Part shown: positions 58,377 to 64,000 of the stretch, in pieces
Position numbering within the stretch: position 1 is the first letter of the stretch
Layout of the letters: each line of letters starts with the position of its first letter
NCBI GenBank assembly: GCA_001600615.1
Contig: BCKK01000005.1
Location: 620,001-684,000 of the forward strand
Length of the DNA stretch: 64,000 nucleotides
Source: Dioszegia crocea
Lineage: Eukaryota; Basidiomycota; Tremellomycetes; Tremellales; Bulleribasidiaceae
Direction: 5' to 3'
Notes under the pieces: model-generated
The model's database searches: none
Told to the model about the DNA's origin: nothing
The model's input: the letters and a program-made list of their open reading frames with translations, nothing else
Made by a program: the position numbers and the translations under genes

Positions 58377-61300
58377 ATGGACTCCGCCGGCTCGGCTCTG
58401 TCGGCCGATGTACCTACTTCCGCCCCCACCTTGACACCTTTGGAGGAGCCAACGATGGCGCCGATATCCTCAGAGCCAGTTATACCGCTACCTCCTCCTA
58501 CCCCTTCTGCTACTGCTTCCTCAATTTCGCAATCGACTCCCAAAGAAGGAAGATCGACCCCTAGATCCGCCGCTTCGACTACACCTCGCCTTTCTGCGCG
58601 GGCCCGGAAACCATCTGCAAAGGTGGCAGAGATGGCAGAAGCCGGGCCGTCGGGAACATCAGGGATGGAGCATATTGAGGAGATGAAGCCGCAGCCGAGG
58701 TTCCTACAACCAGACCACTTGTGAGTGGAAGCTTTCCTTCTTCTGCTTGGTTGCGTCATTGCAAAGGACGCCTGTGTGCTTCAGAAAGCCTAGAACCCAA
58801 CCTTAAGAATGCTGGATCGTCTGCTAATCACATAGCTCTGGCCTGAACAATGGTGCTAAACCCCCATGCGGTGGTCGGACTCGATGGGAACCAGTCTATG
58901 CTGAGGATGATTTCTTGTCGCCCGAAGATGATCCGCTGGCCTTGCGAGGAATACCAGTCTTTCGACCGACCATGGAGGAATTTCAGGTATGTGTCTGACG
59001 ATCAGTCAAGGAGTAGGAACTAACAGAGCAGGACTTTGAGGGGTATATAAACAAAACAGCCCCATGGGGTATGCGATCCGGAATAGCCAAAATCATACCA
59101 CCGAAAGAATGGACCGATAACCTTCCTGCCATGTCCTCTCGAACACTCTCGCAGGTCCATATCAAAAGCCCCATCCAGCAAAATATGATGGGTACTGCCG
59201 GTATATTTCGAGCGCAAAATATCGAAAAGAACAAGACTCGACCTCTGTCGGTCAAGGAGTGGTTTGATAAGTGTCAAAATGAGAAATTTGCGGGACCATC
59301 ACCTAAGGTCGTCGAGAGGGACTCGAGGGAGGCGGCGGTGGCCAGAGAGGAGATCATGAGGGAGAAGAAGGAAAAGTGGGCGAAGAAGAAGGAAGATAAG
59401 TTAAGGCGGAAGGAGGAGAGGGCGGCGGAAGAGGAGGCTGCGAAGTTCGAAGCTGTGGAACTGAAGGAAGAGCCCGAGTCGGCCGAGGCGATAGTTGCGC
59501 CTGACGCGGAGTTGAATGTGGATGTGGATATGGATATGGGAGAAGGATCGGTAGAGAAGACGGATAGCGTACCTGGACTGGACGCTCCTTCCTCTGGATC
59601 TTCACATTCTTCGCCCGAGCCGCCCAAAACGCCAGAGGAACCCCTCGATGATTGGTATCAATCTACCGACTTCAACACTGCTTGGTTACCTAAGAACACG
59701 AGTCCAGAGGATTATACGACGGAAGCTTGTGTGAGATTAGCGGAGAAGTACTGGAAGACGATGGGACTGGGAGAGCCAAGTTGGTACGGTGCGGATCTGA
59801 TGCAAGGTGAGCTGAGTCGATCAAATCGTATTGGACCGGAGCTGATAGATTAGGATCTCTATTTGCCGACGTCAAGACACCTTGGAACGTTGCTCATCTG
59901 CCGAATCTGCTCGATAGGATCAACTGCATTGTGCCTGGTGTAAACGAGCCATATCTCTACTTTGGAATGTGGAGAGCGACATTTGCTTGGCATGTTGAAG
60001 ATGTGAGTTGTCGAGTGCTGCTGCTAAGTAGACACCAAAGCTGATGATTCAGATGGACCTATTCTCCATCAACTTCATTCACTTCGGAGCTCCAAAGTTC
60101 TGGTACGCCATTCCACAAGCCCAAGCCGACCACTTTGAGCGCTTTATGGCCAGTAAGTCTGACCTTGCTCGCTTTCAAAATTATGACTGATTTCGCCAGA
60201 TGAGTTCCCTCTTGATGCACGCGAATGTGATCAATTCATTCGCCACAAATCAATGGCTATCTCCCCTACTCGACTGAAAGACGCCCAGACCCGCGTTAAT
60301 ATGCTCGTACATAATCAGGGCGAATTCGTCATCACCTATCCACGAGGCTATCATGCCGGTTTCAACATGGGCTTCAACTGTGCCGAGTCAGTCAATTTCG
60401 CCACGGACGATTGGGTAGATTATGGGCGGAAGGCCAAACATTGCAAATGTGTCAACTTCAGGTATGTACCCTATCGGAATTGAGAATTAGGCTGATTCCT
60501 CTAGTGTCCGGATAGATATCGACACGATGCTTGCCGAAGCGGAAGATCTCGTCCAGCAAGAAAGAGATGATCCTGGGTTGAAGCGGGCACGGGAGGAGGA
60601 AGATGGGGCTGCGGCAGATGTCGACGGAGTTGGTCCACCCGCCAAAACTCCCCGAAAACGTGTACGGAAACCCAAGCCGGTCGCCATTGCGCCCACTGAA
60701 GGTCCTCTGGCGGAGATTGAATCCAACCCATCACTCGTCATTGGCGAAGGATCACTCATGATGTCTGCCCCGATGGATTCTGCCGAGGGTGTGCTTCCTA
60801 AAGCTAAGAAACAGGCCAAAGCTGCCCCTCGGAAGATCGCCCCAATGAAGGAGAAACCGGTATACCGCTGTCTGTTCTGCCCGTCACTCTCTACGACAGA
60901 CTTATGTCCTGTGTACGACCCGAACGACTTTGTCAAGGCGCAATGGAAGGGAGTGGCGGGTGAGCCTTTGGCTGTGCACCTCATGTGTGCCCAATCGACG
61001 CCTGAGTGTTACTTCCACGAAGAGGCGGTGGAGGGGATGGATCCTACTATTTGGGTGATGGGTGTGAATAATGTTGTGAAGGATCGATGGAGTGCTTTGG
61101 TACGTCTAGCTAGGCAGCGGCCTCTCTCGGGGAATTCCAGCTGACAATTGGTAGAAATGCAAGTTGTGCCCTGACAAGGCACGAGCAGCTAGTGGCGTCA
61201 AAGTGCAGTGTACAAAGGTATATCTACTCGTCTCTCTTGGAGGTGAATCATGCTGACGAGCTCTTCCAGGGTAAATGCCCGGCAGCTTTCCACTACTCCT

Positions 61301-64000
61301 GTGCCAAAGCCGACGACCATCTCAAGACGGAACTGTGGCAAGTGGAAGAATGGGTCCCAGCACCCATACCCGAGGGTGCCCCACCAGGGACCGAGCCGAC
61401 ACTGGAGAAGATCAGTAATTTGAAATTGGAGTTGCTTTGCGCTACCCATAATCCCGTACGTTACTCCAAGCGCCTAGCTTGATAGTTCGCTTACAGTTCT
61501 AGGCGCAAAAAGAAATCAAAGAGCGTGAAAAGGCCGAAGAGCTCCGACAGCGAATACTCCAATTTACTCCGGGATCCATGATCAAGATTAAATCTGGGAG
61601 TGGATGCTGCGAGTATAAGCTGGTGGCTATACATGAAGATGCTAAGGTTGTTGAGTTGGAGATAAGACCGGGCACGAATATAAAGGCGGCTTGGGCTAGG
61701 GTGGACTTTAGGAGTGCGGCGCCAGTCAAGGTGGTGGAGAATGAATATGGTGAGTTTGCAATTCTACTGCAACGACATTGCTGATGTGTATAGCTCGACA
61801 TCATGTTACATCACGCAAAGCCGATGTACCAGCTATGCCGCCTGTCACTTCTCAAGCCCTTCCTCCCCGTCCATATCCTGCGGGGTATGCTCCGCCTGCC
61901 TTGTCAAATTCGAACACGGCCGGTCCATCCCGTATGGTTCACCCTCCACCATCATCCTCCCACTCGTACAATCCCGCCTACGCTACAACCATGGTGCAAG
62001 CGCGGAATCAGGCGCCATTAGCTGCGAATCTCTTCCCTTACCTTACGGCCCAGGCAATGTATCCACCCACCGTGCTGTCCCAATCACCTGTCCCACAACC
62101 ACTCCCTCGACAGGCGCCTCCCATAGGTTCTTGGCCGCCTGATAATCGCCAACACATCCACGCTCGACCTTCCCAACCCCAATCTATGCCTAACGGTGGT
62201 AGTCTCAGCCATCCTCCCGTCAATCCAGTACAAAGAGGATATCCTCAATCCGGATACATGCCTCAGACTTGGGCCGCTCCACCTCCACCTCCTGATAACT
62301 TCGCGCGCACAGCCGCGGGCCTCTATCCCTCTTATACTCCTCAACCGCATATCCAAACGTTCCCTTCCCACCACCTTCCTCCAGGGTATCACCAACACCA
62401 GACCCCGCAGGGATCTACCTACCACCATCTACAAACCAATCCCTCTGCACCACCAGACGCCCGGGTGTATCTCCAGTCCAATCGATATCGGCCGGAACTG
62501 GTAGATACCCGACGTATGTCAGTGCAGTCTCATCATTCCAGCGGAAGCTCTTCTGCGCCTTCGGGAATGCAGCACCTTCTCAATCCTACCTCGGGGGATG
62601 GTACCGCCGGTACTGCCCAGTCAGCCACTTCGAACGGTCAAACTCCCCGGAATGGCTCGGTGTCCGGCGCGTCGGGCTCTGTGGGGAAGATCGATCTCGG
62701 TCTCGAGCGGATGCACCGGCTCATGGCGACCATAGGCAGGCTCGATACCCCTGCCATCCACATTGCGGGTACGAACGGTAAAGGCTCTGTATCAGCCATT
62801 ATCGAGTCCGTACTCCGTGCAGCCGGATTCCAAACGGCCCGATATAACTCCCCTCACCTCCTAGAACCCCGTGATGCTATTCGTCTGAACGGCCGACCCG
62901 TCAATGCCGACGCGTACTATCGCGCCATATCCCACTTTGAACAAACGTCATCTCGACTAGGCATCAATGCCACTTCCTTCGAAATCAACACGGTATCGGC
63001 GTACGCGTTGATGGCGGAGTTCAAGCCGGATATCATGATTATCGAATGTGGGATGGGCGGGGCTAGGGACGCTACCAATGTGATCCCTCCAGATCTGGTC
63101 CTCGCCACCATCCTCACGCCGGTGGGGCTGGATCATACGGCGTTCCTGGGAAACACGATCGAGGCGATTACGGAGGAGAAATCGAGCATAGCTGTCCGGG
63201 GTGCACTATTCATCGTCGCTCGTCAGCCTGCCGAAGCTGCAGTATCTACTGCGCATGCGGTGGGTAGAGCCCGAGGTGCACAGGCGTACAACGCGTACAA
63301 CGTCATTGAGACTACCAATTCAAGGTCGCCCTCGGCCGATGCGGATTACGTTACTTTCGTCCGGCCGCCTCCTCGATCGGTATCGTTCCAAGTGGACAGT
63401 ATGCTCGATCTCGCCGGAAACCCCCTCCCTTCCTCCTCCCTCAAAATGCTCATCCCCCTTCCTGGCGATCATCAGATCAGCAACGCCTCCACCGCCATCA
63501 CACTTCTTAACCGCCTCCGGTACCACCCCCGCGCCATCCATATTCTCCCTCGGCTCGGAAATATCACACTTGGCCACCTAAAGACGGGTCTTGAACGGAC
63601 TAAATGGGCCGGAAGGTGCTCATGGCTCGAACCTCGGAATCCTACGGCCGGTGTACTCCCTATTCTCCTGGATGGCGCACATAATGCCGATTCGGCCGCA
63701 TCCCTGAGGAAATTCATCGACTCTTGCCTGCCAACCGGAGGAGGTCGAGTGAACTTTATTATTTCTCTCTCGGACAGTAAAGGCAAGACACCGGAGTCTG
63801 TTCTTCAGCCACTATTGAAGCGAGGCGATAATGTGGCGGTGGTGGAGTTTTCAGGTCCGATAGAGGGAATGGCTTGGATCAAGCCTGTGTCGAAAGAGGT
63901 CATCATGGGGATCTCGGAGGAGATAGTGGGAGAAGGCCAAGTCTGGGTTGGGTCTGGAGATGGAGGGGAGGGAGACAAGTATGCAGGATTGAAGGGCGCG
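58377..64000 (+). CDS. Predicted fusion: JmjN-JmjC-PHD histone demethylase plus dihydrofolate synthetase, 3' end cut
   Basis: Eleven exons (58377-58720, 58836-58986, 59032-59806, 59854-60002, 60053-60152, 60200-60461, 60505-61099, 61155-61217, 61270-61455, 61503-61749, 61794 to edge) give 1,693 residues so far. Jmj[20 protein letters not shown]. The JmjC core has iron ligands in WHVEDMD (His470, Glu472) and YHAGFN (His558), with [19 protein letters not shown]4-like extended PHD follows: [26 protein letters not shown] and [15 protein letters not shown]. Then come a Tudor-like segment and a 300-residue Pro/Ser/Gln-rich tail. With no stop and no evident intron, the frame continues from about residue 1257 ([19 protein letters not shown]) into a folate ligase of the FOL3/FPGS family: P-loop [39 protein letters not shown] and [11 protein letters not shown] separate start at 62567 for the ligase cannot be excluded. 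Confidence 0.8.

What the first reader, a model, noticed from the sequence alone, without database searches (positions are those of the whole stretch)
58377..64000. Histone demethylase fused in frame to a folate-synthesis enzyme
Seen: the last exon of a KDM4-like JmjC gene runs without a stop from 61794 to the window edge. It crosses a Pro/Ser/Gln-rich tail into a domain with the P-loop GTNGKGS and other hallmarks of dihydrofolate synthetase/folylpolyglutamate synthase. I checked the frame codon by codon. Known: JmjC demethylases release one formaldehyde per methyl group, and tetrahydrofolate captures formaldehyde as methylene-THF; the amine-oxidase demethylase LSD1 binds folate. Inference: the fusion could place polyglutamated folate, or its synthesis, next to demethylating chromatin, linking one-carbon metabolism to histone methylation. 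I do not know of a described fusion of this kind but cannot search.
Basis: partly seen in the sequence, partly recalled or inferred. Interest (0 to 1): 0.88.

Follow-up and report, generated by a model that had tools for sequence, protein, structure and literature searches.

The report
Histone demethylase fused to folate enzyme
In this yeast-like fungus the gene for a histone demethylase runs straight on into the gene for a folate-making enzyme; relatives carry the same fusion, and cousins seem to fuse the same folate enzyme to quite different proteins, so it looks more like a travelling passenger than a dedicated demethylase partner.

Summary
A KDM4/Rph1-type JmjC gene (start 58377, ten introns) runs without a stop through a 297-residue linker into a full-length dihydrofolate synthase (DHFS, FOL3-type); the frame ends at 64102, just past the window; 1726 aa. 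I found no splice route to a stop before the ligase. Thirty models (26 named, Tremellales and Trichosporonales) join JmjC and DHFS at the same junction; 27 of 29 examined lack a Met beside the domain. Catalytic residues tested are kept in 29-30 of 30. Cryptococcus models annotated as two proteins nest inside the fused clade.

The domain is DHFS-type, making dihydrofolate, not tetrahydrofolate or polyglutamate; an FPGS-type gene lies elsewhere. In the sister clade DHFS sits behind other partners: a histone deacetylase tail, membrane-protein-like, DENND11-like and zinc-finger-like ends. Best reading: a real, old fusion with DHFS as a recurrent C-terminal passenger. Formaldehyde capture is unsupported, not excluded. 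One transcript and one polypeptide remain unshown.

The parts
58377..64000 (+). KDM4-DHFS fusion gene, coding span (11 exons, 10 introns; stop ends at 64102, outside the window)
   Evidence: spliced in silico; downstream DNA
58954..59100 (+). JmjN domain (residues 155-188)
   Evidence: Pfam PF02375, 59.8 bits; coordinates converted by hand from the exon table
59952..60399 (+). JmjC catalytic domain (residues 457-573), Fe ligands H470, E472, H558
   Evidence: Pfam PF02373, 132.2 bits; residues kept in 29-30 of 30 fused models; PDB relatives Rph1 and KDM4A-D
60974..61332 (+). extended PHD-like zinc domain (residues 751-834)
   Evidence: Pfam PF13771 and PF13832
61794..62683 (+). low-complexity linker, 297 residues (the codon of residue 958 starts in exon 10), 18% Pro and 12% Ser, with motifs ELVDTRR and MQHLLNP
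   Evidence: no splice route to a stop found
62684..64000 (+). dihydrofolate synthase domain (residues 1255-1726; coding to 64099, stop 64100-64102); P-loop GTNGKGS, Mg ligands E1375 and H1405, Lys K1420 (roles recalled from FolC)
   Evidence: TIGR01499; PDB FolC relatives (1w78); residue conservation

Best explanation
A real and old gene fusion. In the common ancestor of Tremellales and Trichosporonales the DHFS gene (FOL3) became the C-terminal part of the KDM4/Rph1-type demethylase gene and lost its own start codon. It has since been translated as one long protein from the demethylase promoter, both enzymes staying active and separated by a flexible linker. Partners differ between clades, so what is selected is most likely the upkeep and expression of DHFS as a passenger, not channelling between demethylation and folate. 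Shown: the open frame, no splice escape found, conserved junction, intact catalytic residues, no second DHFS-type gene found in this genome, other partner sequences in the sister clade. Inferred: the time of origin, one mRNA, one polypeptide, activity of each half, the passenger role.
For: Open frame through linker and DHFS. All ten introns have a CTNAY motif starting 12-17 nt before the intron end; with matrices trained on those ten introns, the 2.3 kb last exon has one donor-like site (62514), whose only partner within 38-130 nt is weak, has no CTRAY and would remove 111 nt in frame. 30 JmjC+DHFS models, plus 4 with ePHD/Tudor region+DHFS, among the 250 proteins fetched. Linker of 175-285 aa in 27 of 28 measurable models. 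No Met within 10 residues before the domain in 27 of 29 fused models examined; all 23 named basidiomycete rows outside Tremellomycetes have one within five (part read by eye). Split Cryptococcus rows nest inside the fused clade. Deacetylase-tail, membrane-like and DENND11-like DHFS rows each form one supported clade. Only one DHFS-type locus found in the genome.
Against: No RNA or protein evidence was available. C. deuterogattii is annotated as two proteins and the C. neoformans demethylase without DHFS; the H99 annotation was refined with strand-specific RNA-seq and poly(A) reads (PMC3990503, passages seen), though I saw nothing on this gene. Many fused models are predictions (BRAKER2, PMC11185503, passages seen), and some are imperfect: P0019 also carries a transcription-factor domain, probably a merge, and P0020 and P0032 skip most or part of the linker. 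A metagenomic demethylase model without DHFS, P0163, sits among fused Trichosporonales rows. In-frame ATGs occur in the linker, one in a good-looking context at 61991. Two poly(A)-associated ATGHAH motifs lie in the linker and none in the 500 nt after the DHFS stop. Codon bias is weak, with two antisense frames scoring higher. The deacetylase domain itself is seen in one model only, P0033, which has a Met four residues before its DHFS and could be a merge.
Confidence: 0.62

Rival explanations
1. Functional coupling: the DHFS half supplies folate at chromatin to capture formaldehyde from demethylation, or to feed nuclear one-carbon or thymidylate chemistry.
For: Catalytic residues of both halves are kept in 29-30 of 30 models; linker length is fairly constant with recurring short motifs; a second partner may also be a chromatin eraser, a histone deacetylase in Naganishia. 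Demethylases make formaldehyde in nuclei (PMC9839752, abstract start seen in the listing).
Against: DHFS makes dihydrofolate, not the formaldehyde acceptor tetrahydrofolate (recalled); FPGS-type and DHFR genes are separate; other partners are membrane-protein-like and DENND11-like; C. deuterogattii has the parts annotated apart.
Confidence: 0.08
2. One locus, two products: a long fused or demethylase-ending transcript and a separate DHFS mRNA or start inside the linker, so that DHFS acts mainly as a free cytosolic enzyme.
For: C. deuterogattii, C. depauperatus and T. mesenterica models are split, with DHFS models starting in linker-like sequence; in-frame linker ATGs. In Agaricomycetes neighbouring genes are often co-transcribed and also transcribed alone (PMC4503453, abstract seen).
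Against: It does not explain why the frame stays open through the linker in this genome and across 30 models; no demethylase stop reachable by splicing was found here.
Confidence: 0.25
3. Artefact: assembly error or merged gene models.
For: Some listed long models are probably merges (topoisomerase or HAD-domain plus ligase in chytrids; the 2572-aa P0019).
Against: Continuous single frame in this assembly; same junction across the 30 models; some metagenomic proteins look like raw reading frames that read through introns and still continue into DHFS (P0029, P0060, P0102; my reading).
Confidence: 0.03

Closest known systems
Rph1/Gis1 and KDM4 (JMJD2) histone demethylases
   Same: JmjN, JmjC with all Fe and 2-oxoglutarate residues tested, ePHD; best solved relative is yeast Rph1 (3opt, E 3.5e-102), then human KDM4
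   Different: carries a C-terminal linker and a complete DHFS; listed models of Naganishia, Phaffia, Mrakia and mushrooms do not
Fungal dihydrofolate synthase FOL3 / bacterial FolC
   Same: full-length folC match, P-loop GTNGKGS, Mg ligands and carbamate-type Lys
   Different: no Met beside the domain; C-terminal part of a chromatin enzyme
Naganishia histone deacetylase-DHFS model (P0033) and 8 unnamed relatives of its tail
   Same: DHFS as in-frame C-terminal part of an unrelated protein
   Different: other partner, other junction (K[ST]GIHLGL), separate DHFS clade; P0033 has a Met four residues before the domain

Membership tests
KDM4/Rph1 JmjC demethylase | JmjN + JmjC | tested here: met
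   PF02375 59.8 bits, PF02373 132.2 bits
KDM4/Rph1 JmjC demethylase | Fe (H, E, H) and 2-oxoglutarate (Y, K, N) residues | tested here: met
   H470, E472, H558, Y459, K488, N480 (residue roles recalled from KDM4A)
KDM4/Rph1 JmjC demethylase | Tudor domains after ePHD | tested here: inconclusive
   no Tudor model reported by Pfam; a Tudor-like stretch at about 880-955 is my guess
KDM4/Rph1 JmjC demethylase | H3K9/K36 demethylase activity | not testable with these tools
   needs an assay
Dihydrofolate synthase (FOL3/FolC) | full-length FolC profile above cut-off | tested here: met
   TIGR01499 239.8 bits, cut-off 162.65, positions 1-399 of 400; Pfam Mur_ligase_C not reported
Dihydrofolate synthase (FOL3/FolC) | P-loop, Mg ligands, carbamate-type Lys | tested here: met
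   intact here; kept in 29-30 of 30 fused models, the odd one a gap
Dihydrofolate synthase (FOL3/FolC) | DHFS rather than FPGS type | tested here: inconclusive
   groups with fungal rows of which some are named dihydrofolate synthase and others, as P0063, folylpolyglutamate synthase; the C3 gene has GTKGKGS, recalled as the FPGS signature; no reference FPGS was put in a tree
Dihydrofolate synthase (FOL3/FolC) | enzyme activity / complementation | not testable with these tools
   needs an assay
Gene fusion producing one polypeptide | single uninterrupted frame with no splice escape | tested here: met
   (splice matrices rest on ten introns)
Gene fusion producing one polypeptide | single mRNA and single protein | not testable with these tools
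   no RNA or proteomic data

The most novel reading that the evidence does not exclude
In Tremellomycetes the cell's only dihydrofolate synthase has lost its independent start and become a serial passenger that attached itself in frame to unrelated host proteins several times, chromatin erasers (KDM4 and a histone deacetylase) twice; in those lineages folate synthesis is physically tethered to chromatin and tunes, or is tuned by, histone marks.
Probability: 0.1. Interest if true: 0.88.

Novelty: new variant of a known kind. Interest (0 to 1): 0.66.

Why it matters
If the models hold, a housekeeping enzyme of the folate pathway, which is discussed as a source of antifungal targets (PMC7316490, abstract start seen in the listing), is made in many yeasts related to Cryptococcus only as the tail of a histone demethylase. 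That predicts that deleting the whole demethylase gene would also remove DHFS, that the enzyme may sit in the nucleus, and that gene names and knock-out phenotypes in these fungi may be misread. The change of partners between clades is a natural experiment on whether such fusions mean functional coupling or merely shared expression.

Tried and rejected
Splice escape: donor/acceptor pairs in the last exon enumerated with matrices from ten introns; one pair, in frame, no CTRAY. Second DHFS gene: none found by profile or protein search (only first-look candidates are scored, so a very divergent copy could be missed). Codon-usage proof of coding in the linker: right direction on the + strand but weak, and two antisense frames score higher. 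Poly(A) motif scan: not informative, slightly against. Identity of the membrane-like partner: no match from Pfam (P0101, P0102), NCBIfam (P0101) or, at E below 0.06, the PDB; resemblance to a sucrose-type transporter is recalled only. Zinc-finger partner P0113: only a sub-threshold HIT-finger hit. C. neoformans gene pair in print: nothing seen in the listings. The protein lists are capped: 120 of 3304 shown, 120 of 1001, and in each search only about 8000 candidates were scored. In one search the Met distance was blank for rows with an LSL-type motif; I read those N-termini from the printed sequences. Many metagenomic DHFS rows begin inside the domain and say nothing about a partner, and short metagenomic demethylase models (559-747 aa) say nothing about a tail.
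Full report
What was checked. The window is G000:C5:620001-684000 of a 20.57 Mb assembly in 17 contigs. I rebuilt the gene from raw DNA: ATG at 58377, ten introns of 43-115 nt, last exon from 61794, stop ending at 64102 in the adjoining DNA, 1726 codons. Pfam finds JmjN, JmjC, two overlapping ePHD-type zinc models and the Mur-ligase middle domain, but reports no Mur_ligase_C; TIGR01499 folC covers the ligase end to end. 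The nearest solved relatives are Rph1 and KDM4 for the first half and FolC enzymes for the second, whose best stretches cover about the first 200 residues of the domain.

Is the join real? The linker (residues 958-1254) is open in frame and interrupted in the other two forward frames; 28 of 20,000 first-order Markov sequences modelled on it stay open. Codon scores favour that frame on its own strand only weakly, and two antisense frames, full of stops, score higher. All ten introns have a good donor and a CTNAY motif starting 12-17 nt before the intron end. With matrices trained on those ten, the last exon holds one donor-like site within a bit of the weakest true donor; its single possible partner is weak, has no CTRAY and would remove 111 nt in frame. 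So I find no way for the demethylase frame to stop by splicing before the ligase. What remains open is a transcript that ends or starts inside the linker.

Is it conserved? A length-restricted search with the ligase half gave 38 proteins. Of the 250 proteins fetched in all, 30 hold both JmjC and DHFS and 4 more hold the ePHD/Tudor region and DHFS. Of the 30, 26 bear names: Kwoniella, Cryptococcus, Naematelia, Kockovaella, Vanrija, Cutaneotrichosporon, Cryptotrichosporon and a Tremellales sp. I looked up Vanrija (Trichosporonales) and Kockovaella (Tremellales); the orders of the others are recalled. The junction [N/S]GVGKIDLGL or close to it is shared. Catalytic residues tested are kept in 29 or 30 of 30; the odd ones are a gap, one Ser at K488 and one Lys at N480. 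The linker is 175-285 residues in 27 of 28 measurable models (the other is 27) and carries motifs such as PLR..MLNP and PSRVV.CD in part of them. Not all models are clean: P0019 (2572 aa) also has a transcription-factor domain, P0020 and P0032 skip linker sequence.

A start-codon test. All 23 named basidiomycete rows outside Tremellomycetes have a Met within five residues of the domain, either as the first residue (MSIDLSLDRI) or just inside (SDMISLGLSRI). Of 29 fused models examined, 27 have no Met within ten residues; the exceptions are K. pini and K. dejecticola. The domain thus seems to have lost its own start.

Split models. Cryptococcus deuterogattii (P0159 with P0063), C. depauperatus (P0162 and P0049, from two strains) and Tremella mesenterica (P0161 and P0094, both on a contig of 1,296,828 bases) are annotated as two proteins; for C. 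neoformans I saw a demethylase without DHFS (P0160), not its DHFS by name. Whether the genes are neighbours could not be seen. The C. neoformans demethylase keeps the linker motif PLRMDEILNP, and the C. deuterogattii DHFS model starts in linker-like sequence ending NGLGKIDLGL. In the DHFS and the demethylase trees the Cryptococcus split rows lie inside the fused group; T. mesenterica lies in the group, but in the demethylase tree its place is unresolved. P0163, a metagenomic demethylase model without DHFS, sits among fused Trichosporonales rows. Either the fusion was broken secondarily, or models are split or cut. The H99 annotation was refined with strand-specific RNA-seq and poly(A) reads (PMC3990503, passages), which favours a real split in that species; I saw no data for this gene.

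The unexpected part. In Naganishia vaughanmartiniae (Filobasidiales) the model with DHFS is a histone deacetylase (P0033; Hist_deacetyl 118.3 bits), and the demethylase of N. cerealis has no DHFS (P0170). Eight unnamed proteins share the tail that follows the deacetylase domain, four by BLAST and four by motif; none of them holds the deacetylase domain itself. P0033 has a Met four residues before the ligase, so it could be a merge, but the tail is conserved in frame with DHFS in the others. Eight more have a membrane-protein-like end (RMA.QW or the like), four by BLAST including the reference and four by motif; two have a DENND11-like end (P0106 90.5 bits; P0129 by similarity to it); one has a zinc-finger-like end (P0113). 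In a 50-row tree, with labels that I assigned (P0040 as KDM4 type on linker motifs only), the KDM4-type rows with two split rows form one clade (100/99); deacetylase-tail, membrane-like and DENND11-like rows each form a clade; all four types together form the sister clade (100/100). Only Naganishia is named there, so its extent in taxonomy is inference. P0102, P0029 and P0060 look like raw reading frames running through an intron, which suggests contiguity at DNA level; that is my reading.

Interpretation. DHFS joins glutamate to dihydropteroate to give dihydrofolate; adding further glutamates is the work of FPGS (recalled). The genome has one other FolC-like locus found, on C3, with GTKGKGS, which I recall as the eukaryotic FPGS form, and separate DHFR and HPPK loci. 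So the fused half supplies a needed step but not the formaldehyde acceptor itself. With partners changing between clades, the simplest account is a passenger enzyme expressed from whichever host gene it joined. Coupling to chromatin is possible (two of five partner types are chromatin erasers, if the deacetylase model holds) but nothing here tests it.

Novelty. Ten full-text searches listed no title or abstract start that describes a JmjC-DHFS or HDAC-DHFS fusion. Four of them were capped (20 of 173, 8 of 19, 8 of 9 and 10 of 50 shown), and the library holds open-licence papers only. I opened four papers: passages of three (PMC8080763, PMC11185503, PMC3990503) and the abstract of one (PMC4503453). 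The models are public under demethylase names, but I saw no description of the architecture. I rate it a new variant of a known kind.

Noticed in passing
P0033 (Naganishia vaughanmartiniae), P0097, P0103, P0104, P0108, P0110, P0118, P0120, P0127: DHFS follows the tail of a histone deacetylase in frame (the deacetylase domain itself seen in P0033 only), an apparently independent fusion of the same enzyme to another chromatin eraser.
   Followed up: partly
P0096, P0098, P0099, P0101, P0102, P0105, P0107, P0111: DHFS follows what looks like the C-terminal end of a membrane protein; resemblance to a sucrose-type transporter is recalled and no library confirmed it.
   Followed up: partly
P0106, P0129: DHFS follows a DENND11-like protein (PF09804 90.5 bits in P0106).
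   Followed up: partly
G000:C2:1375167-1375548, C2:2851527-2851616, C6:1321610-1321699: Other JmjC matches in this genome, not classified.
   Followed up: no
G000:C5:684519-684555 (L008 519-555): Short tandem repeat of 'gttaaggtcgtaaagtc' downstream of the fusion gene, seen by eye.
   Followed up: no
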